64,000 nucleotides of DNA, from assembly GCA_028753945.1 (NCBI GenBank), contig JAPNXP010000002.1:3224001-3288000 (forward strand). The letters run 5' to 3'. A model generated the notes under the pieces. That model did not search any database. It had not been told where the DNA came from and saw only the letters and a program-made list of their open reading frames with translations. Positions 1,835-54,685 of this stretch are shown one piece after another; within the stretch, counting starts at the first letter, position 1; the number at the start of each line of letters is the position of its first letter. Made by a program: the position numbers and the translations under genes. Origin of the DNA: Hexactinellida sp. DTS-2022. Lineage: Eukaryota > Porifera > Hexactinellida.

Positions 1835-3724
1835 TAACTAACAACTAGTCCAATAATTCCAATGGCTACTCCCATGTCTTGGAGTAGCCATGGAACTCGT
1901 TGGCTACTCCCGATGTCTTGGAGTAGCCATGGAACTCGAGGAAATACCATATTCTATTTCTTTTCGACCAGGAAGTTCCAATGTGGTTCCGGACTATCTG
2001 AGTCGAAGGCCTACTAACATGGAGGTGGATCCTGAAGTGAACAGAGAGAGCCGTTTCGAAGATCGCATTTTCCATACCCAGAGGGTCGAAGAGCAACTAG
2101 ATGGATTACAAGGTGAGCTTCGTGAGAGACTAGTGAGCAAACGAATAAAGAAAAGCATTATATTGATACTGGGACCAGCGCCCCAGTCGCTTCGCGCCCG
2201 AGGAGATACCCGCCTCATTGGGAACAGGAGATAGAGGAACAAGTGATCGAGATGATAGAGAACGGAATTTGCCGTGCTTCACGATCACCCTGGGCGAGTA
2301 ACGTGGTACTGGTAAAAAAACGGGACGGATCGCTACGGTTTGCGATAGATTACCGTCGCCTGAATGATGTTACTAAGAAGGACGCATACAGCTTACCGAA
2401 CCCACAACAGATATTGGACAAATTGGATGGCGCTAATTACTTCTCCTCTCTGGATGTAGCCAGTGCGTTTGGTGTGTCCCTGTATGCGGATGTGATATAG
2501 AGAAGACAGCATTTTACACCCCGAGAGGGCAGTATGAGATGCTGGTTATGCCTTTTGGCCTTTGCAATAGTCAGGCCACTTACCAACGCCTCATGGATAG
2601 GACAATGGCAGGTCTGGATTTTGTGGAGACCTTTGTGGATGATTGCTTAGTGTTTTCCAATTCGTTTGAGGAACATTTGGACCATATAGAGGCAGTTTTA
2701 CGAAGGCTGAGGGATGCTAGGATTCAGCTACGCCTCGGAAAGTGTCATTTTGGTTACTCAGAAATAAATTTTTGGGACATTCAATCACCCGTGGAGGGAG
2801 GAAGCCCTTGGAGTCTGCGGTGGAAGAGCTCTCCCATTTCCCACGCCCTAACTCAGTTAAACATTTGCAGGCATTTTTGGGAAGCGTCAATTTTTACCGG
2901 GCGTACATTCCTCGAATGGCCCAGATAGCCCATCCTTTGTATGCATTGACCAGAAAGGGAGTGTGCTGGAACTGGACCGAGGTGTTTGAGCAATCTTTCG
3001 ACAAGTTACGGCGGAAGTTGGTGTCTGAACCAGTGAAATTGGCTTTTCCGAGGTGGAGTGAAGAGATTTACATCGAAGCAGATGCCAGCAGAAAAGGTGT
3101 GGCCGCCGTTCTGTCTCAGAAGGATAAAGATACCGGGGTACTACAACCCATCAGTTACTTTTCGTCGGCGCTCAGTTTATCACAGATAAATTATTCAGCT
3201 GGACAGTTGGCGGCTTGGGTATTAGTTGCAGCTTCGCGGAAGTGGGAACTTTACTTGAAGGCAGCCCCGAAGGTCCACCTTATTACGGACCATTGTCCCT
3301 TGCAATGGTTGAGGAATCAGAAAGACCCCCGCCATACATACGCCCGATGGTTGATGGAACTCGAGGAAATACCATATTCTATTTCTTTTCGAACAAGGAA
3401 GTTCCAATGTGGTTCCGGACTATCTGAGTCGAAGATCTAACATGGAGGTGGATCCTGAAGTGAACAGAGAGAGCCGTTTCGAAGATCGCATTTTCCATAC
3501 CCAGAGGGTCGAAGAGCAACTAGATGGATTACAAGGTGAGCTCCGTGAGAGACTAGTGAGCATAGAACCAATAAGAACCATCGAGGAAATACAGTCTTGG
3601 GCCAACCGAATTGCTCATGAACAGAGGATGGACGATGTCATTCTGGACGCTAGGCGTCAGCTCTCAGACAGAGGGTGGATTGAACACGGCCAGCTGAAGA
3701 GGTTTTCCTGTCATTTACGGATTA

Positions 3725-4284
3725 TTAACTGTAGACTGCCGGAGTGATTTTCAGGAAAATAGCATACCCTGTAGTTCTTTGAATTTAATATTTAGAACCT
3801 AATAATTTGAAATCCAACAAGAGCACAATAATATATCAACATTCTAGAATTTTTGAAAAAATTTACTAAAGGATTTCGACAAAAAGTGATGTCACATACT
3901 TTCTCTTTAAGGAGATTCAATGGCAAATTTTCGACACCCGATAACCACCAAATATTATTCCGTTTTTGGACAGTACTAGTTTTTCTAAGAAGGACGTAGA
4001 AACTCAGAATTTCTAAAATCGAAAAATTTGAATTAGATATCAATATTTTAAAATAGCCTAATAGTGAATCCATACTAGTCAATCTAAATTCTAGCTATTT
4101 ACTCTATTTGGCGCTAGTTCTATTATAGTGCAAGTTTAACTCTACTACATTAGTACTATGCATTATGCCACACAGAATTTTCAATATCTATTTAATTCTT
4201 TTTTTCTATAGATTTTTAAATAATCACTCGATTTTATCAGAATTTTGACATTATATAATAATTAAGTCTATAACTTTGTATTAA
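3725..4284. mobile_element. TTAA-bounded MITE, family B, inside gypsy
   Basis: Bounded by TTAA at 3725-3728 and 4281-4284. The left end CTGTAGACTGCCGGAGTG recurs inverted at 13640-14022 and about 46995-47012. The body matches 13311-13657 in reverse. It interrupts the gypsy pol region and has no coding sequence. Confidence 0.75.
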
Positions 4285-4861
4285 CGATGCCCTTTACTTT
4301 GACAATCGAATTGTAATTCCGACGGCTCTTAGAGGAGAAGCAATTCATCGGACTCATCAAGAGTCACACTTTGGTCAAGCAAAGACAATAGAAAAATGAA
4401 GAGAAGTTACTTCTGGTCCAGAATGGCCAGGGATATTAAACTTTTCTGCAATGGCTGTTTGGTTTGCCAAAAGTCAAAGGCAAAAACGTACCCGGGGCAG
4501 CCGATGGAATTGTTTAAAGACGAAAACTGGATGCCTGGAGAAGCAGTTGCCATGGATGTGGCTACTCTCCCGTGGGGAGATGGAGAATATCGTTATTTTA
4601 TGCTGATGGTTGATTTGTTCTCTAATTACATTGAATTAGCACCACTCCGCGATAAGACATCTGAAACGATAGTTCGCGAGTTTAAACGGTCTTGGATTTA
4701 CAAGGGGCATGGCGTACCCGAAGTATTGCTTACAGACCAAGGACCTAATGTTGACGGCCGTGGAGTACGCACAATGTGCAATGCCCTGGGCATCGAGAAA
4801 CGCCACACGACAGCTTATCACCCCCAGGCTGATGGTATGGCAGAACGTGGTATTGGAACTG

Positions 4862-5587
4862 TTAAGGTTAAATTACGGCAGATTCACCCAAAAAACACAT
4901 GAATTTAGTTTTGAAGGCGGGAGTTTGAATTTCACATATATGATGGAAGAGATTATAGCTATATCGAAACTGAAAACGAAATCTAATTATCTTCTATAAA
5001 TTCGAAATTATTGGGCTTGCAGTATTATGCTAATACAAAAGTCCCATAGGGGGATTTTTTCGACTCCACCTGATAAGTGTGTAGTTTGCAAGATCATTAT
5101 TTGCTAAAGACCTGTACTGTGTGATCTATCAGAAAGATCATCGTTATGGGCGGTTGGTGGGCGGTTTAGAATTTTGATAAGATCTAAATAAAAAATATTG
5201 CGACCTTTTGAAATCAAAAAATGAATAAAAAGGTCATCTTTTCATGCGAAATTTGATAAAATGCTTGATAAAAAAAATTCCAAGTCATAATTCAAAAATG
5301 TAAACCGTCTACCTACTCCGTACGCTTATAATCTTTAAATATTGATTCTGATGACAAACATTGATAATTGCATTGCCAAATTACCGCATAATATCGACCA
5401 CCACTTTTGGTAATCGCCCTATGGGAGATTTGTATTAGCCAAATTTTGAAACCGACAAAAAATAAAAAGTATAATAGATAGGGACATTTTCTTTTTGGTT
5501 TATTGATTTGTATCGTATAGGTATATATTTCTCACAATTACAGATTAATACAAGAACTTTCATTCACGTGGGGTAATTTAACCTTAA
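4862..5587. mobile_element. TTAA-bounded MITE, family A, copy 2, inside gypsy integrase
   Basis: TTAA-GGTTAAATTACGGCAG at the left and GGGTAATTTAACC-TTAA at the right; 726 bp including both TTAA. It is inserted in the integrase region. The gypsy element thus lies in one copy of this family and carries another. Confidence 0.88.
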
Positions 5588-6437
5588 GCAGACTATCCGT
5601 TGCCTTCTCCTTGAACGGAAGATGGACCATGGAGCATGGCCGAGTATCCTTCCAGAGGTGAGTTTTCTCCTGAATAGTGTTACGAATGCTTCCACTAATA
5701 TTGCGCCAAATATGCTCACCTTTGGCCGAAGCCCGCGAGTACCCACGGATATCCCTTCACCTAATGTATCAAGAAAGGAGACAACAAAGGATGAATATTT
5801 TCAGGAACTCTCCATTAGACTGGAAGAGCTTATAGGAACTGCACGGATTAATCGAAGCAAGAGTACAAAAGCTTCGAAAGTTTATTACGATAAAGGGAAG
5901 AAAGACATGGGAGTTAGAGCAGGAGATAGTGTGCTTCTAAAGAAAGAAGTAAGAGGTAGTTTGGACCCTAAATTTGAAGGTCCATATACAGTAATAAGGA
6001 GAGACGGTGAAGATGTTAAGATTAGCCTTCCCGAGAAGGATAAATGGGTTCACTAGAATAGGTGCAAACCATATGAGAGAAGTAAAGTAATCCTTCCTCT
6101 ACAAAAGTACACTGTCCAGGAAGGGACAGAACGTATCGCTTCCGACAGCATGGAAAAAGATATTGGACAAGACCTCGAACGGAGACAAGAGGAACAGGTT
6201 GCCTCTGATGATGGAGAAGAACGAGAAATTCCAAATTCGGATTGCGCAGACCAAAGCACTAGAAGCACGGTCACACCACAAGAAGAGGAAATGGAAATTG
6301 AATCTCCCCGCTATCCTAGGCGGATAAGAAAGGCAACGCAGTTTTATGGAGAAATCGCCCCATGCTCATGGGGTGGGTCGGGTAATTCTTCACCTGCAGG
6401 AAAAGAAGATTTCCGACACAAATGAAAGGGGAGGAGA

Positions 6438-14947: not shown

Positions 14948-17512
14948 TTACATAAAATGAACTTTTCTGGCTTTGACTTTGGCGAACTTCGAAATTACGA
15001 CATTGAAGTCTATCTCACGGAGAATGGCACTCTCAATGCAGATGAGAGCTAGCTGATTCAGTCGTTCGTCTGTCATTGATGTGCGGATTTCATTTTTTAC
15101 TCGTTTCAACGTAGAAAAGGATCTCTCTCCTGAACAATTTGAAACAAATAGTGTCAAATAGAGACGAAGAGCCACTTCCACATTCGGAAATGCTTCACGA
15201 ATTCCAGGCTCCATTAAGATGCGGTACATTTCAAATTCTACATTGCCAGATAACAGTTGGACGTTTGGTCTAACAAATTCAGCAAATTGTACAATTTCTT
15301 CGCATAACGTTGATTCCAAATCACTTGAATATGTTTTCACGAGATGCTCAGATGCTGCACGCAACTCTCCTGGAGACATATCCTTCATATTCTCCAAAAA
15401 TCCAAACAATGAGCATACTGTTTAGTACGCATCCAAACGTTTCTCCAGTGCAGCCACTAAATTATCCACAATAGGCAAGAACACTTCTGTTCTGAATTTA
15501 TCACGTGGTGAAAGATGAGCATATTCTGCAGATCCATCATATCGCGTAATCTTTACACTTCTCTGTCGTTTACGGATGTTGGCATCGCGGTATTCTTCAA
15601 TCGCAGTCAACCTTTTCCCCATTTCTTCAAATTCGTCAAATTTGTTCCTCAGTCCTTCAACATATGTCTTTAGCGAGTGTAGCATACTCACCGCATTATT
15701 GAGAGCCAAAGTTGCTGATAGTAATGCCTTGCTGGTGAGGTTGAAACGCTCCATGATGGTTGACCACAACTCAGTGAGTATGCCATACTCAAGCTGATCC
15801 ATTTTTCTCACAAGTCCTTCCGATTCTCTTCGAGTCTCTGCCTTCAAGTTGGTATCTTCTTCAATCGTTTCTAGTGTAAATTTGATCTTGCTGAAGCCAT
15901 CTTTCAAGGCTTTTAATGCCTCTGCCCGGGCTGACCAGCGTGTTTGACTAAGATTCTTCACAATCAGATCTCCTTTCAAGTTGTCCTTCAGAATGGACCA
16001 GCGATGGGTAGATGCACTCAGGAATCTGTACACATTCTGAATGAACAAAAAAAAACTCAGTGCCATTGGGGCTGAATCTACTGCATTAATCGCAACCAGA
16101 TTCAGTGAATGGCCGAAGCAGGGGATATAGAATGCAAGAGGACTGCTTTCCCGAATGAGAGTTTGAACACTGTGATATTTTCCGGCCATGTTGCTGGCGT
16201 TGTCATATGATTGTCCTCTGCAGTTTTTCACCACAATCCTCCAGAAACGCAAACAAACTGTTGGTGAGTTGCTGTGCGCTGTGCCCTTCCATCCCAAGAA
16301 ACTTCATGAATCTCTCAACGGGAATTGGTGAATTCTCTGGAACATATCGAAAATACAGGTTAACTGATCCACATTACTTGCATCAGGCGTGGAGTCAATT
16401 TACACAGAGAAATATTTTGCTGCTTTCAATTCATTGATGATGTAATCCATGACCTGTTGACCCATGATTGCTATAAACTCATTGCACACCGTTGATGATA
16501 GGTATGTGGTTGAGCCACGTCCTTTTCCATTAGCATGTTGAAGTTTTTGTCTTTCCATGTGTGCAGCTAGGAATGGGTCAAACTTAGAAATTAGTTCCAG
16601 CACACCGAGGTAATTTCCATTTGATTTAGAACCGACGATTTCATCTTGGCCACGAAATGGCAACCCTCTTTCAGCTAAGAATTTGATGACTTCAACCACG
16701 CGTTCCAGGACAGCCCTCCAGTAGCTGCATTCAGCATTATACTGTTGCATCAGTTTCTCATCTACTCTTGCTTTTTCTCTTCCAAAGTCATTTAGTTTCG
16801 TGATGGATGACACATGCAAATCGGACCGTTCATGCTCTTGAATTCTTCTAGAAGCATTTTTCCAATCATTGTACCCTCCTTTAGTAAAGGAAATGCACTC
16901 ATGGGAGAATAGCTTGCAGTGGAAGCAGAACACGTGTCCAGTTGACGGAGAATAACACAGCCACGTTCTCGAAATTCTTCTCTCTGTGAGCGGGTGAATG
17001 TATGTGAACAAACATTTAGAAAAATATCGGACTTGTCGAATTCCATCAGCGATCTTTGATGCCTCATAGTTAACATCGGGATGCTGACAATCTTTACTTC
17101 CACATTGTGCCCAATATTCACGCATATCTTTAGTTATTTCTTCAGGCCATTTTGCTAAATCCGTATCGTACACATACGCAGGAGAAGCAGCTGGAACAGT
17201 CGTTTCCATTGTATCCACCGTGCCCTCAGCCTCAACCTCTGTTACAGCGGGTTGAACATCCATGGCTTGCGATGAGGTGCCACTACTACATGGATCTGTA
17301 GAGAATGTCACTTCATCTGGTTTCGATTTGGACTCTGTTACCGATGGAAATATGCTGGTCAGTTTCGGAATTTTTGCCAACATTTTTTCATCACGTTCAA
17401 TAGTTTCATGACGTTCATTTCTCTTCTCGGCGCCAGATTTATGTCGGTATCCGGAAGACTTGTTTTGCGTTGAAAAACAACTAATAAATATTAAATTATA
17501 TATATCAAGCAC
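14948..17512 (-). pseudogene. hAT transposase, TTF zinc-finger / ZMYM1 type, broken
   Basis: In order on the minus strand: a basic start region (about 17460, KSGAEKR), a TTF-type zinc finger about 16850-16990 (VFCFHCKLF ... IQEHERSDLH), the hAT catalytic region with GQSYDNASNMAGKY about 16170-16215, the FGHSLNL motif, and a C-terminal dimerisation domain (SGERSFSTLKRVKNEIR) about 15090-15140. A TAA follows KYFSV near 16398, two frame changes lie between about 16210 and 16350, and a second in-frame TAA follows LDAY at 15419-15421. It therefore cannot give one product. The family catalyses cut-and-paste transposition with 8 bp target duplications, matching the flanks. The exact N-terminus is uncertain; a spliced first exon is possible. 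Confidence 0.88.
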
Positions 17513-17646
17513 TAAAATAACATTAGTAACTTACTTTTAACTCTCTAACAAAATTGACTTGAAGTAAACAATATATAATTATTCGCACAATAAATTTTTC
17601 AAATAAAATAAGAATAAAATATAAATATACAAATTAACGTCTATTA

Positions 17647-18004
17647 GGCCACATAAAATAAATTACTTGTTTATCATCCATATTTTTCGAGAAAATTGGG
17701 ACGGCGGACGGGATTTTATTTTTATTTTTTATTTCTATTAATATGCAAATAACATCATCCTATGCCAAAAAATTAATATTAATATTAAATATAATTAGAA
17801 AATAACATGGCAATGCCAAATAATTAAAGTAATGCTCTAAAATATAGACCTTATTAAAAATTCATACATAGTAGGTACTTTACACAAGTTATTGCTTATA
17901 TTTTGTACGATTATGTTGATAAGATAATAATAAGATAGATCCGGACGGGTAGTTAAAATTGGGGCGGACGGGGATGATAAACAAGTTATTTATTTTATAC
18001 GGCC
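17647..18004. mobile_element. Harbinger-type MITE, copy 1 (358 bp)
   Basis: Ends GGCCACATAAAATAAAT and ATTTATTTTATACGGCC flanked by TTA on both sides, as PIF/Harbinger elements make. It is near-identical in reverse to 60488-60845, also 358 bp, so both inserted recently. It sits inside hAT 1. Confidence 0.88.
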
Positions 18005-18177
18005 TTAGTTTTACAAACATACATGGGTGATACAGAACTGATAGAATTTGAAGAAAGGAAGAATTACGCTTTGATAGATCAAAAATGTATAAATTAAACT
18101 TACGACGAGCAGATTTTCCCGGGCCCCCAGAACCCACGGGCCCCTAGCCTGCAGCCCAGAGTTGGAATCGGGTCCAC

Positions 18178-18275
18178 TTTTCAGAACCCGACCCGACCCG
18201 AACCCGACGACCTTCAACCCGAACCCGACCCGAACTCGACGATCTTCAACCCGAACCCGACCCGAACCCGAAGTG
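18178..18275. repeat. hAT 2 left subterminal repeats
   Basis: Array of ACCCGACCCGAACCCGAC-type words spaced by CTTCAA, mirrored inverted at 21238-21332. Such clusters are typical hAT transposase-binding regions. They resemble short telomere-like G-rich repeats (CGGGTT on the other strand) only superficially. Confidence 0.75.
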
Positions 18276-18341
18276 TATATAAGTATAGATATAAACTGAA
18301 ATTCCTCTAAAATATATGTTTATTTGACATTTCAACTAATA

Positions 18342-20971
18342 TTAGTCAAACAAGTTTTTCTTTTGATGTTTTTCAGCTGAATATAAAAATTCCAGCGCCT
18401 CTACTTTTTCTGGAGAAAGTAAAGTTCTCCGCTGAGTGAGTGTTAGTCCACAGGATGAGAAATCACGTTCTGATTGTCCACTAGAACATTGTGCCGCAAA
18501 CAACATTTTTGCCAATTGTCTTAGAATTGGATATCTCCTTTGATTATCTCTCCAGAAGACAAGAGGGTTGTTATCTTCAGTTATATTCGATAATGCTGGT
18601 GACATAGCCTTGTAGTCCTCAAATTCCTAAACATATCAGATATATCTATAAATAATCTATCAAAAGATCTTACATGGTACATCCATCCTATATATATAAT
18701 GATAACCCACCTGTCTGCACTGTTCTTGCTGTGGATATGGAGAGTTTTTGGTAACTGATACCCCTGAAGTTGCGCCATCCCGCAGGTCAGAAAAGATGTG
18801 CTCGTTTACATTTGAGACACATTGTCTTTTGTTATTTGGCTCACTTCTCTGATCGAAAGAAGTGCGATTGACGATGTTATCCATCTGACTCATTATCCAT
18901 AACTCAAGGTCATCTAGAAGTTGCATCTTGAATAGGCGATCAGCATGGGTGATGTTTGGAAGGAAATCAAAACGTTTGAACATTGGGTCGAGGAATGTTG
19001 ACATCCAGTGGTGAGCCTTGAGAGATCCCTCGAAATATTTCACATTTAAGTGAATGATCAACTCTTTCTTTAGTGTAGCAATTTCTTGGCTGTCACATTC
19101 ACTTGGTTGAGCGAACGCCACTGCCTTGTAGTATACCAGAACTGCATAGTTGATTGTAGGTATAGTACTGGACTGCAAAATCTAGAGTTATAACATTACG
19201 TATTACAAATGTCTTAGTTTAATACGTATGTACATAATTATAAATTGTATACGTATATATGTATATATATTTATATAAACGTCCACTTCGTGAACTAAGG
19301 CTACAAATACGATAGAAAAATTATGAATATAAACCTCAAATAATTTGCCGAAAGGATCCATAAATGCTAGGATGTTAGAGTTTAGTTTGCGGTCGAGTGA
19401 TGCGATCAGCATTAGTCGGTCTCTGTGCGGCTCGGCAAGTATTCGCTGAAGGCAATCGTAGCTCGCATCAATGGAACGTGCACGGTCAATAAGACCTTGC
19501 CACCTCCTAAATAAGGATGATGTGATGTAATATGTAGTATAATCAAATATGCCAAGTAACACAAAGAGAAATATTAAAAACCTGGTTGAGCTGCCTTTTT
19601 TTATTGTTACCGGGAGCTGTTCTTGAACTCCACTGGCTTGGTTGCAGTATTTGGTCAAAGCTGCAGCTGCATGGTCGTATTCCACCAGCTGTTGATTTTT
19701 TGCACATGCATTCGACCACATCGTTGTCCAACAAGTATGAAGACGATGAGCCATACAATCCAATCTAAAATATAAATTGTATTAATATTATATGCTAATA
19801 TCAAAAGATAAGCAACTGTCCAGTATGGTTTCAAGCTTGTACCTTGCAGAATTTTCGCATATGTTGAGGCTGAGACAATGTTGGAACCATGGTCTGTGGT
19901 GGAGGTTATCATTTGGATATCGATATTGTACTCCGAGAGGATAATATGAACTGCATTTTTGATATTTTCAGCTGTGTGACGATTTGGACCGAAGTGACGG
20001 ATTGCTAGGGTACAGTGCCGTAGTACAAAATCGGTATCGATCCAAAATGCGTGAACATCCAGATATGAGCTGTGTTGATAATCATCTGTCCATAGATCAA
20101 GCGTAATCGAGAGACTGTCAGCTTTCTGGGGCTCAACTAACCTTTCAATTAGTTTTTCCTTTACCTCTTTCACCTAATTAACAAAAGTTGAATAATATAT
20201 ATTGTCTGGCTCGCTTATTATATTAGGCCACTGTTAATGAGAAACTTATTTCAGCAAGAATTTCCCCTGAGGACGCGGACGGGCGGAGTCTGATTATCTC
20301 ATTATTTAATTCCTAATCAATCACACTCCTTTGAATCATCGATATGAATTCTTAATCGATTGCTATACAATTGAAACTCGTACCATAGTCAGATATACGT
20401 ATGAATAAATACAACGGATTAATTAACTTACTTTCTGTTTGCTAAAGTCCGAAATTGTCTTTCTCCCGAACAAGACGCCCTTCACATTGAAACATCCCAC
20501 ATTTGATGCGATGTTTACAAATATCTGCAGCAAGCCAATAAGTCCCTCGTTCTCGAGAGAATTGAAGGATTGATGTCCCATCACGCAGAATCCTAACTCT
20601 GCATTTTTTATCTTGATTTTTTGCTTTTCACTCAGAACAGTGAGCTTCGTGAAGGTGCTAGTGATGAGTGGTTGGGATATTCCCTGTACCTTCTTGCAAT
20701 TTTCCGCATGGCGACTTAGGGTGGAAGAACCCGTGATCTTCGAGTCGTATTTCAATACGTGCTTGCAAAACCTGCAGACGAAGAAGCCTTCAACAATGCG
20801 TGGCATAGAATTCCCATCTTCATTGTCATTCAACCGACTGATAACATCGAATGACTTCCAGAATTCTGCCCGGCCGCAAGCAATTGTAAAGGTGAAGCGC
20901 CCGGGAAACATCTTTATTTCTGTATTAAGAATTTCTGCTGGTGTTGACATTCTCGCGAAAAAAGACAACAA
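18342..20971 (-). CDS. hAT transposase with BED finger, six exons, looks intact
   Basis: Predicted exons (minus): 20971-20432, 20173-about 19847, 19764-19582, 19503-19335, 19181-18711 and 18626-18342; about 655 residues, normal for the family. Exon 1 has a BED zinc finger (FFVCRFCKHVL ... SRHAENC) and a Hermes-like DNA-binding segment. Exon 2 has two catalytic aspartate motifs (LDLWTDDYQHSSYLD, TTDHGSN). Exons 3-4 give AHRLHTCW and the STRWQG junction. Exon 6 has the dimerisation domain with the catalytic-Glu motif SGQSERDFSS. Four introns are GT-AG. The exon 2/3 junction keeps frame only with a GC-AG intron (CT|GCAAGG); the nearby GT donor would shift frame by one base. I see no nonsense codon within the exons. 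It is the best candidate here for an active transposase, and its binding sites are probably the subterminal arrays. The start at 20971 or at the second Met (about 20950) is undecided. Confidence 0.82.
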
Positions 20972-21237
20972 ATATTTAGTTATAAAAAATACAGAACACT
21001 TACGAAATATAGTATTGAGTAAATTAAAAGTAGCTACTAAGTTGTTTTGTATTATTAAGGAAAATTTGTATCTTGGAATATTATGGGTTAATAATATTTA
21101 TATAACCCATCAATGTGCTTATGAGGTCATTTGATTAAAGTTCCATATAATGTTTCTATTGTAAATATAATCTTTCAAAAAATAGAATTAAATCATTGAA
21201 TTCAAAAATGTTACGCACTAAGTTCGAACTGATCAAC

Positions 21238-40203: not shown

Positions 40204-40549
40204 TTAATGCATATTTTAAGTTTCTTATATCTCAAAATCATAGTATTCTTGAATTAAATTAATAATAAAAAGTAAAATAAGCCAAAAATTCCTTTTATAG
40301 CGTCTCAAAATATCACTGTTTAAATTATAATAGCACATCCATAGTTTGCTAATACAATGTCTCAAAATCTCACGCGTCTCATTCTTGAATTAAATTAATA
40401 TTAAAAATTAAATAAGTCAAAAATTCCTTTTATAGCGTCTCAAAATATCACTGTATAAATTCTAATAGCACATCCATGGTGTATAGAGTAAATCACATAG
40501 GCGTCTCAGAATCTCACGCGTCTCAAAATATCATGCAACAGGTCTAATC

Positions 40550-40678
40550 GGGATACAGACTTTTCGTGACAGGACTTTTCGCTACAAGACATTTCGTGAC
40601 GGACACTTAGTGATAAGACATTTCGTGACATGGACTTTTCGTGACAGGACATTTCGTGACAACAAATTATTATAAATT
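40550..40678 (+). repeat. Left terminal inverted repeat of the 10.7 kb element
   Basis: Made of variants of one motif: TTTTCGTGACAGGAC, TTTTCGCTACAAGAC, ATTTCGTGACGGACAC, ATTTCGTGACATGGAC. Mirrored at 51115-51243. The internal periodicity suggests clustered protein-binding sites. Confidence 0.9.
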
Positions 40679-40694
40679 GTATACAGTCGCATAC

Positions 40695-42202
40695 CTCACG
40701 GGTCTCTGAAATCATAATCTCGGTCAAAAAAATACGGACCTTACGAAATTTACAGATTAGAAAGAGCATTTCATTTACTTTTTTAATTTGTTTTGAATAA
40801 AATATTTCCATCACACAATTTTTACCTAGTGTGATTTTATAATTTGGTGTAAAATATTTATCGAATTTTTATTTTTATTATCATAATTAACATAAAATAA
40901 CATATTACTGGTATATTTTTCATCTCAAGTACATAAAATGACATATTAATTAGACTAACATATGGAGTAGTTGGTGAAATTTGCCTCGCAAACTGCGTTA
41001 TAGGAGCATTTTGGATAACTTTCAACATCTTGATTGCATTTGTATCTATTCCAGACCTTCATAAAGCGTGAGTGATAGGATTCAACTGCTTGTTCTGAAA
41101 CACATCAAAGACCCTTTCCAGGAGGAAGGTATTTCTGTATAAAAGGTACAATGTGGCGACAAATAATATGGACTTTTGTTGAACATGGTAGCCCTGTTCT
41201 ATTAAAAGCCTCTTCGAATTGATGAATATGTTCAATATCTTCAATTTCAATATTCGTCCCGAAGCAAATTGTAACCACATCACTAAACCTCTTCATGGCA
41301 ATGAAGGTGGAGTTTGAAGGAGGAAAAGCCAGTTGCTCACACATTTTGAGCAGCTTGCGCATCGCATTTCCCTCAAATGCATTTCCATGGTAGGTACTCC
41401 ATTGAATATTGTTTATCTTTCAGAAATTTTTCATGCGCGAGTGTTTCTTCTTCAGACATTGTCGTAAGTAGGGCATCATATAGATTTTGTCCCACTCCTA
41501 ACATTAAATGTAATTCAGGAATATTGAACCTATCCATTGTATCGGACATCCATATTCCTATTGAAGGGAGATCTTCCACGCCCATACAATCTATTGCATG
41601 TTTTTTGGCATCACCGCTGTACACTGTAGAAAGCTTGTCAAACATCGTTGAGTGTAGAAGAGAAGATGCGAAGTGAGCTTAATATTGCCAACTTTGGCAC
41701 AACACCACCGACAAACCTTATATTTAGCTGCTTCATGTACGTCCATAATATGTGAAATGTGTTTTAATTAATGGTTATAATAAATATTATTTTAATGCTC
41801 ATGTATTGCATATTTATAGATAATTACATTTCGAATATAACAAAGTGTATCGAATTGTGGAAGAATATGCGTGATAATTGATTATTAATTATCTATTCAG
41901 GCATTTAATAAGTAAACCACATCTAATTTGCAGGATTCTAAATACTGATTGAATAATAACTCTAACCTATCATAATAAAAGGAGTTTTATCAAAAACAAC
42001 CTCAAATCGGAACTAAAGAGATGAAAGCCAATTTAGAATTGACACCAAATTATAAAATCACACTAGGTAAAAATTGTGTGATGGAAATATTTTATTCGAA
42101 ACAAATTAAAAGAGTACATGAAATGCACTTTCTAACCTGTAAATTTCGTAAGGTCCGTATTTTTTTGACCGAGATTATGATTTCAGAGACCCGTGAGTAC
42201 GT
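40695..42202 (-). mobile_element. 1.5 kb element with 158 bp inverted repeats
   Basis: Arms 40695-40852 and 42045-42202 are inverted copies starting CTCACGGGTCTCTGAAATC. TAC on both sides may be a 3 bp duplication. It lies between the left end of the 10.7 kb element and the RAG1-like gene. The centre carries a DDE transposase remnant on the minus strand. Confidence 0.78.
41000..41760 (-). pseudogene. DDE transposase remnant with SEQAVES motif
   Basis: On the minus strand: a Cys-rich start (VCRWCCAKVG, about 41715), DKLSTVYSGDAKKHAIDCMG, then YHGNAFEGNAMRKLLKMC, TPKVH-like STKVHIICRHIVPFI, and finally VSEQAVESYHSRFMKVWNRY near 41020-41080. The pieces are in different frames (changes near 41640, 41375 and 41100), and a TGA stands next to GKGL at about 41108. 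The H...H plus SEQA-ES end resembles the glutamate end of RNase H-fold transposases. The exact superfamily was not recognised. It is the C-terminal portion only. Confidence 0.55.
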
Positions 42203-43657
42203 TTACAACTCAACTCAAGTTACTGTTGGCATTTGTATTGCATATCGAATGATGCTGAAACAGACACTTACTCGCTTGCTCTCCACACTCACTAATTTAA
42301 ACGATGGTCAATTTCCATTGGCGCTCAGAATATCAGACGGCCTTGATGGTTCTGGTTCCCATCAGATTTATAACCAACTAGAAGAGAGTGTACATTTTAA
42401 TTCGAAGAACTTCTTGTTATTTGCTTTCAAACTACTTTCAATTAAAGATTCTTCTGACAACGATGTTTGGATAAATTCCCTGCCTAATTCCCATTTTCAA
42501 GTTAGACCTGTTGCTTTAATAGCAATGAAAGAAAGCGAGGAAAATGTGCGGTTCCTAATGGAGACATTCATTAATCCCGAAACCAAACTAATTGAACAAG
42601 ATGGTATTGATCTCCCGCAAGGGCTTGTGAAAGTTAAGGTATACCGTAGCATGTTCGATGGGAAAATGTCGGGTATCCTAACCGGTGCTGGCGGTGCGAA
42701 ATGACAATTATGCACAGCCACATTCGCAGAGCTACACGGCATTGATCTAGTAAGATCTGGATTCCTAATTAATAGAACTATATCAGCTGCAAGAGATATA
42801 TTTGCTTCCGTTGACAAGACTGAGTATTTATCACTCCCATCTCAAGAACGATTTGGCCTAACTCATGAACCATTATCCGAAATTGAGACACTACCTGCTT
42901 CTCCTCTCCATTCATACACATGTGTATTTCGATGGTTCATGACACTTGTGTACCATTTACATTCCGGATCTAATAAATGGTCACCAACATCTGCTAAAGT
43001 AAAAACTCATTGAAATTTGTTCGTGATTTCTTACAAGAGAAAACAGGCCTAAAAATTGACCAACCTTCTAGTGATAGAGGTACAACATCTACTGGTAACT
43101 TAGCTCGTGAATGTTTTAGCAATAAAAATAACTTCATACATTGGATTACAACCTTAGTTCCAGCCGATTTCCATGATTCTCTCAAGAAAATTCTTAACAA
43201 TCTCTCAGCTATCCTGCGCTCTTTCAGTAGTAGTAGGGAGATAAATACCGATACTCAAGGTCTTCTATGTCGAGAAACAATCGAATTCATCTTAGTAAAA
43301 TTTCCATGGGTGAATATTACACCATCCCTCCACAAGTTGTTAGCTCATAGCACGGAGTTAATTAGGGATTGTAACAACGGGTTCGGGATGAAGGAATTTT
43401 CTGAAGAAGCGGTTGAATCATGTAACAAGTTGATTCGAAAATACCGTGAACATCTCTCTCGAAAAAATTCATTCGGTTTAAACAAGAGAGATATCTTTGT
43501 GCGTCTTTTATCACAAAGCGACCCAGTTTTGACTTCATTTCGACATCAAGTAGTTTGCAAGAAATGCGGAGAACCGAGCCACATTTGCAAACTACACTGC
43601 AATACTTCTTTTCCCCACTCGGAACAAGATAATCTATTAAATGCATTGTTTATATAA
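42203..43657 (+). pseudogene. RAG1/Transib-like transposase core, broken
   Basis: Two consecutive frames. The first (to 42704) has ALRISDGLDGSGSHQIY, matching the first catalytic Asp region of RAG1 (Asp codon 42336-42338). It ends at TGA 42702-42704, exactly where RAG1 has the first Cys of its CxxC zinc site (stop-Gln-Leu-Cys). After a one-base shift in an A-run near 43000 the frame continues with TGLKIDQP, GTTSTGNLAREC, the zinc-site HKLLAH, and the catalytic-Glu motif SEEAVESCNKLIRKYRE (Glu codon 43415-43417), then a Cys-rich tail (CKKCGEPSHICKLHC). The second RAG1 catalytic Asp (after ALHC) appears replaced (PLHSY). The N-terminal RING/zinc and nonamer-binding parts are absent. Transib/RAG-type elements make 5 bp duplications, so the 9 bp-flanked outer element is probably not its own. 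Confidence 0.82.
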
Positions 43658-44109
43658 GTTATATTTTGTTAAGCCACTATTCAGCTCAGTAAACAATTAT
43701 TAGTTCATTATTGGAATATTATTTTTTTTGCATATTTTTCCGATGACGTCATAATTTTGGTTGTAGAAGCTGTAGAAAAAAACTGACCATACCAGTCGAT
43801 TCCTAATAGTCGATAACCCATATGCAATTAATACATTTTAAATGTTTAGGAAGCATGCAAACACCTATTTCCCCTCAGGTGTCTATTTTTCCCCACTGTG
43901 TGGAAACTGTCGAAGGCCATTGTAAAATAAAGGGCACTACTTTTTCTCAAATATTCGTCATAGTTGACCTGATTATGTTTTTGGAACTATATGGGAACAT
44001 CCGAATATGATATATAGAACCTTTCAGAATTGAAATATGTAATCATTTGATCACGTAATCGTCAATTTTCGTTCGAATTAACTTGTTTTTAAGCCCTGTT
44101 TTTACACAG
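43658..44109. other. No feature recognised
   Basis: AT-rich spacer after the RAG1-like frame. The short frames here show no family resemblance. Confidence 0.4.
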
Positions 44110-52507: not shown

Positions 52508-54685
52508 CAATGGTTCCCAAAGTGGGCGCTAGCGCCCCCCTAGGGGCGTTGAGATACAACTAGGGGTGCGCTGACAAGTGTGGGGCGGTCAGGGAGGCGC
52601 TAGCATGCAGGTTGACTCTAAGGGGATTGTTGGCGTTGTAAGGATAAATAAATATTTACTTCGGATTCTATACAGTTATCCAATGGTTATAGATATATAT
52701 ATTAGACACTTAGTATTTGAATGGCTGAGAAAAAGAAAAAGTGTATACAATACTCTGTGGACTATCTAAAATTTGGAATGAACCGTCTCCTCAAAATGTC
52801 CAATTAACTATGTGCCTCCTTTGTGAACAGACCTTCTCCAATGAATCCATGAAACCTTCCCGGCTGAGCAACCACTTAAAAGCTATGCCCAGTGACAAAA
52901 GCATGAAGGACATTTCTTTCTTCCAGCAACTAAGAGACAAGTTCATCCACCGACAAACTATCTCAGCGTTTGTTGACAAATCAGTGGTTCAGAATACTGA
53001 TGGATTGCTTGCTTCTTATAGCATCTCTTTATTAATTGCCAAAGCTGGAAAACCCCACACCATTGGCGAAGATTTGATTTTGCCAGCCATTGAGAAGGTT
53101 ATAACGACAGTGATGCATCGTGATGGCGCTCCATTGTCAAATAATTACACTAAGCAACAATTCGGTAGCAAGACGAATTGACGATATGGCAAATGATGTT
53201 GAGAGTACTTTGTGTGGCATGTTAGTATCGAGAGAATTTGAAATTCAAATCGACGAATCAACACTTCCTGGTAGTGAAGCTCTAGTGATGGCATATGTCC
53301 GCTTTGTTAATTATGGAATTCTAATTCAAGACATCTTGTTTGCCAAAACACTTCTAACGGACACCAAAGGGCTGTCAATTTTCAACTTGCTTAACGATTT
53401 CTTGCGTGAAAAAGCAATACCATTAACTAATATTGTTGCGTGCGCTACCGATGGTGCTCCTGCTATGGTAGGAAAACATCGCGGGTTTCTAGCCCATCTA
53501 AAGCAAGCCAATCCCGACATCTTCACAATCCATTGCGTTATCCATCGTCAGCATTTAGTGGCCAAGAATCTCAGTGAACGGCTTCATACATCTCTTAACA
53601 TCGTGGTTAATTGCGATCAACTTCATCAAATCTCATGCCCTCAATGACCGATTGTTTCGACAACTTTGTGCCGACAATGACGAAGAATTCAAACTACTAC
53701 TTCTGCACACTGACGTCAGATGGCTCTCGAAGGTAATGGCTTTGAAGCGGTTCTTTGAACTCTGCGAAACTGTTGTTGAATTCCTGGCTCCGCATAATCC
53801 CGCTCTTCACCATAACGTAGTTCGAGTGAGAATCGATATGGCATACATGACAGATTATTTTGCGAAGTTTAACGAAATGAATCTGCAACTCCAGGGTCAA
53901 GACAACAACCTCATTAAGTCGAAGAGCCTTATCAATGCCTTCATTCGCAAACTGGTACTGTTCTAATCGAACCTAGCACGAGGAGATCTTTGCAATTTTC
54001 CATCATTGAGATTGGACGTGACTCTGTTAAGGAAGAGGATTTGATGGATTTTTGTGCCCATTTGGAAGCAGCATCTCAAGATATGAAGACGCGATTTGAA
54101 GATTTGTTATTGCTGGATGTCCCCCAATCGGCAATCAATCCATTCAAGTGTGACGTTTCGACCGTTAACTCAAACATTCAGGAGAAACTCATTGATCTGA
54201 CATGCGATCTGGAAGCACAAGCAATCTACACTCAAAACGGTTATCAACAGTTCTGGATCAACACCAAAATCGTGGAACGTTATCAAGAATTATGTTTTGC
54301 AGCCCGTAATATAATTCTGGCATTTCCAACATCGTACTTGGTGGAAAAGGGGTTTAGCGCCGTTAACCAATTGGTAACTAAGCAACGGAATCGCCTTCAA
54401 GTTTGGGAGCGAGGTGATCTTCGCCTCCTTCTGACAGACATCGAGCCAAATATTAGAAAACTGGTTGCCAATCACCAAGCACATCCATCTCACTGACAGT
54501 TTAGGTATCTAGATTATAGTTTAGGTGATTAATGAAAGATTTTATCAAATAAATCTATTGTTGCATTGACATTATTCAAACATTCAGTAACGAGTAAATA
54601 TTTTTTGAAGTGGGTGGGGGGGGGGCGTTAACAATCTTATATCTTGTCAAGGGGGCGTTGTGCTATATAAGTTTGGGAACCACTG
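52508..54685 (+). mobile_element. hAT transposon 3 (SCAND3/ZBED5-like)
   Basis: Tips CAATGGTTCCCAAAGTGGGC and GTTTGGGAACCACTG with an exact 8 bp duplication ATTTAGAT (52500-52507, 54686-54693). GC-rich GGGGCG words lie just inside both ends. A broken transposase gene fills the middle. Confidence 0.9.
52722..54496 (+). pseudogene. hAT transposase, SCAND3/ZBED5/FAM200 type, broken
   Basis: The start at 52722 (MAEKKKK ... VDYLKFG) is the family's usual opening. Next come a BED-like finger (MCLLCEQTFSNESMKPSRL ... HL), catalytic motifs EIQIDESTLPGSEAL and CATDGAPAMVGKHRGF, IHCVIHRQHLVAKNL, HTDVRWLSKVMAL, and a C-terminal dimerisation region (LVEKGFSAVNQLVTKQRNRL ... RGDLRLLLT). The frame changes about four times (near 52790, 53155, 53610 and 53970), so the copy is dead. 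The order and length (about 590 codons) are otherwise full. This lineage gave rise to several domesticated vertebrate genes; nothing suggests domestication here. Confidence 0.88.

What the first reader, a model, noticed from the sequence alone, without database searches (positions are those of the whole stretch)
42203..43657. RAG1-like transposase core with closer-than-usual RAG1 signature
The catalytic-Glu block SEEAVESCNKLIRKYRE aligns with the RAG1 block around Glu962 (SEGNESGNKLFRRFR), and HKLLAH with the RAG1 zinc-site HKTLAH. The first catalytic Asp block (SDGLDGSG) is also present. RAG1-like and Transib genes are known in invertebrates, but each lineage bears on the origin of V(D)J recombinase.
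Basis: partly seen in the sequence, partly recalled or inferred. Interest (0 to 1): 0.8.

Follow-up and report, generated by a model that had tools for sequence, protein, structure and literature searches.

The report
Broken Transib transposon, RAG1's transposon cousin
This is the broken right half of a Transib "jumping gene", a distant cousin of the RAG1 enzyme that assembles antibody genes; many related copies sit in the same genome and some look recently mobile, so it is a new member of a known family and not a RAG1 gene.

Summary
The motifs are real, but the feature is the 3' half of a dead Transib transposon (window 42196-43900, +), not a RAG1L or ProtoRAG gene. The C-terminal piece matches HzTransib (E 6e-14) far better than BbRAG1L (0.007) or mouse RAG1 (0.08); Pfam RAG1 stays below its cut-off. 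The DDE residues remain, but the frame has a TGA and a frameshift and the 5' half is absent. The own genome gave 150 scored matches, 13 in stop-free frames of 700 aa or more. Of 20 regions inspected, 14 show CACAGTG (exact RSS heptamer) at both ends with 5-bp TSDs (13 perfect); none of the 14 holds a second ORF over 130 aa. RAG2 models found nothing, without a positive control. The two ends share a second block offset by 9-10 bp in 9 or 10 of 12 elements. With a CTT1-like knuckle in 7 of 14 paralogues, this resembles the published "Subgroup I" Transibs, so "closer than usual to RAG1" is partly true but already described. The other half lies about 86 kb away, beyond an inverted copy of the same Chapaev-like element, with AGTA on both outer sides: possibly a macrotransposon insertion.

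The parts
42196..43900 (+). 3' half of a Transib copy, ending in the terminal heptamer (CACTGTG = reverse of CACAGTG) at 43894-43900
   Evidence: 95-98% identical to the longer copy L025 (C2:4.10 Mb) in two blocks; terminus
42198..42701 (+). transposase reading frame piece 1 (pre-RNase H and first RNase H part)
   Evidence: phmmer to HzTransib E 8.5e-5; alignment A1
42702..42704 (+). in-frame TGA that breaks the transposase
42345..42347 (+). Asp codon aligned with RAG1 D600 (in SDGLDGSG)
   Evidence: RAG1 numbering inferred from the chain length of 4wwx_B
42657..42659 (+). Asp codon aligned with RAG1 D708 (in RSMFDGKM)
42705..43010 (+). transposase reading frame piece 2 (LCTA zinc half-site, PLHSY)
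   Evidence: the frame is lost near 42990-43010
42998..43657 (+). transposase reading frame piece 3 (ZnH2 HKLLAH, catalytic Glu, C-terminal CX2CX4HX5C knuckle)
   Evidence: phmmer to HzTransib E 6.4e-14; Pfam RAG1 17 bits
43415..43417 (+). Glu codon aligned with RAG1 E962 (in AVESCNK)
43840..43900 (+). 3' terminal region: heptamer CACAGTG and second block GGGGAAATAG (read inward from the end)
   Evidence: window 3' end printed; the offset test itself used paralogues
40697..42195 (.). 1.5-kb Chapaev-like element (termini CAC/GTG, about 170-bp TIRs, degenerate antisense reading-frame pieces) abutting and truncating the Transib copy; followed by AGTA at 42196-42199

Best explanation
A dead copy of a Transib cut-and-paste transposon from a large family in this genome (organism not identified). 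Intact-looking relatives encode one transposase of about 700-750 aa with a RAG1-type DDE core. By homology to HzTransib and RAG it should pair two ends that begin CACAGTG, nick next to the heptamer, form hairpins on the flanks and paste the element with 5-bp duplications. The heptamer, the TSDs and the recent mobility of close copies are shown; the chemistry is inferred. The two ends are not equivalent: a second block shared by both ends sits about 9-10 bp (one helical turn) further in at the 3' end in most elements examined, so synapsis probably needs one short-spaced and one long-spaced end, as with 12/23 RSS (inferred). The window copy is inactive. Its reading frame is broken, and its 5' half was separated by an approximately 86-kb insert bounded by two inverted copies of a Chapaev-like element.
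For: PDB scores favour HzTransib for the two window pieces searched, for L029 (92 bits vs 34 and 29), for L042 (104 vs 80 and 40) and for the 12-protein profile (165 vs 69 and at best 59 bits). RAG1+BbRAG1L are split off at 100/100. CACAGTG at both ends in 14 of 20 regions inspected, 13 with perfect TSDs and 1 with one mismatch. Without any TSD condition the same end search gives 17 pairs, and those 14 are among them, so the TSDs are not made by the search. No second ORF over 130 aa in any of the 14 elements. Two copies 99.1% identical over 3082 bp have different TSDs, CATTT and TAGTA. End asymmetry: summed block score 109 at offset 9; 0 of 500 shuffles reached it, maximum 90. Split copy.
Against: The window copy shows only one end, and element positions 1-435 and a 5' end with the expected TSD (TGGAA) were not found in the 5.2 kb read across and upstream of the 5' half. 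The Pfam RAG1 match is below its cut-off. Window piece 2 has no Pfam match and was not searched against the PDB. 6 of 20 inspected regions gave no end pair with TSD. In one search, 3 of 12 elements do not have their best block at offset 9-10 (L024 +14, L034 -1, L041 -2); the shuffles did not preserve dinucleotides, and the elements are related to each other.
Confidence: 0.93

Rival explanations
1. It is a RAG1-like (RAG1L) gene from a RAGL transposon of the ProtoRAG kind, with RAG2L nearby.
For: RAG1 homology, the HKxLAH and NKL motifs and a CTT1-like knuckle. L042 in the same genome scores 79.5 bits to BbRAG1L and passes the Pfam RAG1 cut-off.
Against: HzTransib is the best match in each of five family searches, including for L042. 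In 14 complete elements of 3.0-4.2 kb no ORF other than the transposase exceeds 130 aa. RAG2 and RAG2_PHD models gave 0 hits, but without a positive control.
Confidence: 0.03
2. It is a domesticated host gene derived from Transib.
For: The DDE residues are retained.
Against: Stop, frameshift and missing 5' half; many similar matches in the genome; position beside other transposon relics.
Confidence: 0.01
3. The missing 5' half is due to an assembly mis-join or a multi-step rearrangement rather than an 86-kb macrotransposon insertion.
For: The two bounding 1.5-kb copies are 1498 of 1499 identical, which invites mis-joins. Of four other copies with both ends seen, one (L049) lacks matching 4-bp flanks, so rearranged copies of this element exist. 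No raw reads are available here, and one 5-kb stretch of the cargo showed no full second copy among 40 of 4528 candidates scored.
Against: Both Transib halves lie in the same orientation, meet at L025 element positions 1265-1269, and share AGTA on the outer sides, as one insertion would give. A simple inversion between two copies would have put the halves in opposite orientation.
Confidence: 0.35

Closest known systems
Transib superfamily (HzTransib structure 6PQN; original description by Kapitonov and Jurka 2005 recalled, not read)
   Same: Single transposase gene, DDE core, CACAGTG-like termini, 5-bp TSDs
   Different: Intact-looking paralogues here are about 700-750 aa, some with a C-terminal zinc knuckle; the stretch between TGNxAR and HK is 79 residues in the window copy against 70 in HzTransib
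Subgroup I Transibs (PMC9435367, passages read)
   Same: Asymmetric TIRs, a CTT1-like CX2CX3[G/S]HXnC knuckle in 7 of 14 paralogues and the window piece, a longer alpha11-alpha12-like stretch
   Different: Knuckle spacing Hx5C (Hx3C in one row), not GHx4C; 7 of 14 paralogues lack the motif; clade membership not tested for want of reference sequences
ProtoRAG / RAGL transposons (PMC7204232, PMC8289069, passages read)
   Same: RAG1-type core, heptamer-like termini, 5-bp TSDs, asymmetric ends; AanRAGL has 4/13-bp spacers, i.e. a 9-bp offset too (PMC9435367, passage)
   Different: No RAG2L found; transposase sequence closer to Transib
Chapaev / CMC elements (PMC4079192, passages read), for the neighbouring 1.5-kb element
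   Same: Termini CAC/GTG; matching 4-bp flanks in 3 of 4 other copies with both ends seen
   Different: No Pfam match for its two degenerate coding pieces scanned; superfamily not proven

Membership tests
Transib superfamily | Transposase most similar to Transib transposases | tested here: met
   HzTransib is the only Transib among the references
Transib superfamily | Termini CACWRTG-like (motif recalled) and 5-bp TSD | tested here: met
   14 of 20 inspected regions, 13 of them with perfect TSDs; in the window copy only the 3' terminus could be seen
Transib superfamily | Single transposase gene, no RAG2L | tested here: met
   no second ORF over 130 aa in 14 of 14 elements; a spliced gene would not be seen; RAG2 models 0 hits without positive control
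Subgroup I Transib (PMC9435367) | Asymmetric TIRs | tested here: met
   offset 9-10 in 9 of 12 distinct elements by free scan, 10 of 12 by anchored scan with L041 weak
Subgroup I Transib (PMC9435367) | CTT1 domain (CCHC motif) | tested here: inconclusive
   similar motif in 7 of 14 paralogue proteins and in the window piece; spacing differs by one residue
[quoted passage not shown]
   length 78-83 against 70 (HzTransib), 83 (BbRAG1L), 86 (RAG1); length only
Subgroup I Transib (PMC9435367) | Placement in the Subgroup I clade | not testable with these tools
   no ctenophore or Hydra Transib references on hand
RAGL / RAG1L | Groups with RAG1/RAG1L in a tree | tested here: not met
   (three references, long branches)
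RAGL / RAG1L | Linked RAG2L gene | tested here: inconclusive
   none found, but no positive control rang
RAGL / RAG1L | RAG1 N-terminal non-core zinc region | not tested
   the window copy lacks its 5' half; no separate test was made on the paralogues' N-termini

The most novel reading that the evidence does not exclude
A RAG2-free, recently mobile Transib lineage uses exact RSS heptamers and a subfamily-specific second motif placed one helical turn apart at its two ends, i.e. a working 12/23-like rule that does not need RAG2; and one of its copies was split by an 86-kb macrotransposon carried by two Chapaev-like elements.
Probability: 0.4. Interest if true: 0.5.

Novelty: new member of a known kind. 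Interest (0 to 1): 0.33.

Why it matters
The relic itself is ordinary. Its family is useful because intact-looking, recently moved copies with both ends are at hand. They would allow a direct test of whether end asymmetry of the 12/23 type works with a transposase alone, which bears on whether the rule arose before RAG2 joined. If real, the 86-kb insertion is a further example, besides maize Ac, of transposon pairs moving large DNA.

Tried and rejected
Relatives in bacteria and archaea (genome contigs) and in IMG/VR with profile A2: 73 and 31 stretches matched a pattern, none confirmed; the scan uses two short peptide patterns, so this does not test the published claim of bacterial Transibs. 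RAG2 and RAG2_PHD: 0 hits, no positive control. A first idea that the 5' half was lost by an inversion between two copies was dropped, because both halves lie in the same orientation. A 3-bp TSD for the neighbouring element was dropped for 4 bp after comparing other copies. A second copy of the 86-kb cargo was sought with one 5-kb stretch only: besides itself, only partial matches, 40 of 4528 candidates scored. Of the paper searches, searches were seen as listings; passages were read in seven papers. No structure prediction was run.

Full report
What was checked. The three motifs are encoded as stated. Read as three pieces, the region gives homology across the transposase core. Piece 3 (42998-43657) hits HzTransib at E 6.4e-14 (55.7 bits), BbRAG1L at 0.007 and mouse RAG1 at 0.08; Pfam RAG1 reaches 17 bits against a cut-off of 25. 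Piece 1 hits HzTransib at 8.5e-5 and no RAG1. Pieces 1 and 2 have no Pfam match at E up to 1; piece 2 was not searched against the PDB. The residues aligned with RAG1 D600, D708 and E962 are all present (RAG1 numbering inferred from 4wwx_B). The frame is broken by a TGA at 42702-42704 and by a frameshift near 42990-43010.

The family in the genome. The window lies on C11 of a 112.4-Mb, 18-contig genome of an unnamed organism. The search with piece 3 scored 150 of 550 candidates and lists 150 matches; some are pieces of one place, and the tool calls its counts lower bounds. 13 of the 150 lie in open frames of 700 aa or more without an inner stop. Among the 20 fetched regions the closest to the window copy are L025 (98% over 317 bp and 95% over 1411 bp) and L033 (96% over 1094 bp). 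Of these 20 regions, 14 gave a pair of ends found with the loose pattern CACNNTG, and all 28 of those ends read exactly CACAGTG. TSDs of 5 bp were perfect in 13 and had one mismatch in 1; element lengths were 2975-4232 bp. L023, L026, L027, L033, L039 and L042 gave none. One search asked for a near-matching TSD; one search repeated the search without that condition and found 17 pairs, of which 14 have the TSD. None of the 14 elements has an ORF over 130 aa besides the transposase. L028 and L031 are 99.1% identical over 3082 bp with TSDs CATTT and TAGTA, which shows recent movement.

Placement. The profile of 12 paralogues scores HzTransib 165 bits, BbRAG1L 69 and RAG1 at best 59; L029 alone scores 92, 34 and 29. 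As a yardstick, HzTransib fragments score RAG1 17-25 bits and BbRAG1L 19. So this family is somewhat nearer to the RAG1 side than HzTransib on most chains, not on 3jbw_A, and is still Transib first. In a tree of 18 rows, RAG1 and BbRAG1L stand apart at 100/100. HzTransib, RAG1 and L042 sit on long branches, the tool warned of long branches meeting at L042 and of BbRAG1L's composition, RAG1 filled only 32% of the columns, and the exact order is unsure. PMC9435367 (passages) describes Subgroup I Transibs with asymmetric TIRs, a CTT1 tail and an alpha11-alpha12 region, nearer to RAG1L. Here 7 of 14 paralogue proteins and the window piece carry a CX2CX3[G/S]HX3-5C tail, and the TGNxAR-to-HK stretch is 79 residues in the window copy against 70 in HzTransib, 83 in BbRAG1L and 86 in RAG1. 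The profile also touches the RAG1 nonamer-binding domain structure 3GNA weakly (E 0.024). Clade membership could not be tested.

End asymmetry. In 12 distinct elements (L030 and L031 dropped as near-duplicates of L029 and L028) a free scan for the best 14-bp block shared by the two ends puts it at an offset of 9 or 10 bp in 9, at +14 in L024, at -1 in L034 and at -2 in L041. A scan anchored on the 3' block gives 9 bp in 7 (one of them, L041, weak at 6 of 9), 10 bp in 3, 14 bp in 1 and none in L034. Summed over elements the best offset is 9 (score 109; 0 of 500 mononucleotide shuffles reached it, maximum 90). The block sequence changes between subfamilies (GGAAATAG, GGTCGATTA, CTTCGAATA) but is the same or nearly so within an element, as a binding site would be. 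Asymmetric Transib and RAGL ends are published (12/23 in Drosophila and mosquito Transibs, PMC8355894; 4/13 in AanRAGL, PMC9435367; 27/31 in ProtoRAG, PMC8289069; passages read), so this extends a known pattern.

Why the 5' half is missing. The copy begins at the right end of a 1.5-kb element (40697-42195) with CAC/GTG termini. Other copies of that element show matching 4-bp flanks (L045, L047, L048; L050 is the same place as L048), L049 does not, and L046 showed one end only; CAC/GTG termini with 3-4-bp TSDs are Chapaev hallmarks (PMC4079192, passage). An inverted copy, 1498 of 1499 identical over the stretch compared, lies at C11:3180080-3181579. To its left stands the other part of a Transib copy (L025 element 436-1269, 94.7%), ending in AGTA; to the right of the window copy stands AGTA and the 3' half from L025 element 1265. 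The two halves therefore complement each other around a 4-bp duplication, in the same orientation, separated by about 86.1 kb. The simplest reading is one insertion of a macrotransposon, as known for Ac in maize (PMC9910405, passages). A mis-join or multi-step rearrangement is not excluded. Element positions 1-435 and the 5' TSD were not found in the 5.2 kb read there.

RAG2. No RAG2 or RAG2_PHD match, but neither search had a positive control. The absence argument rests mainly on the small elements without a second long ORF; a spliced gene would escape that test.

Changes made on re-checking: the asymmetry count is now given for both scans, the TSD and second-ORF controls were added, and wording that called the genome an animal's was removed, since the organism was not identified.

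Noticed in passing
window 1-42195 and C11:3180080-3266195: About 86-kb insert bounded by two inverted, almost identical 1.5-kb Chapaev-like elements, with outer AGTA duplications, inside a Transib copy; a possible macrotransposon.
   Followed up: partly
L042:2225-4309 (C2:3227724-3229808): Single 695-aa Transib-like ORF, 39% identical or less to the other matches listed, 79.5 bits to BbRAG1L and over the Pfam RAG1 cut-off; 3' end CACAGTGGGC with the same second block, 5' end not found; the most RAG1L-like of the proteins tested here.
   Followed up: partly
window 41059-41678, minus strand: Degenerate frame pieces inside the Chapaev-like element with an H-x4-H and SEQAVES block that resembles by eye the RAG1/Transib zinc and Glu block; no Pfam match for the two pieces scanned.
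   Followed up: no
window 2437-6056, 14948-21097, 52729-54496: By eye the ORFs look like a gypsy-type polyprotein relic and hAT/ZBED-type transposase relics, so the window looks like a nest of mobile elements.
   Followed up: no
window 40548-40670: Short direct repeats of TTTCGTGACAGGAC-like units beside the Chapaev-like element.
   Followed up: no
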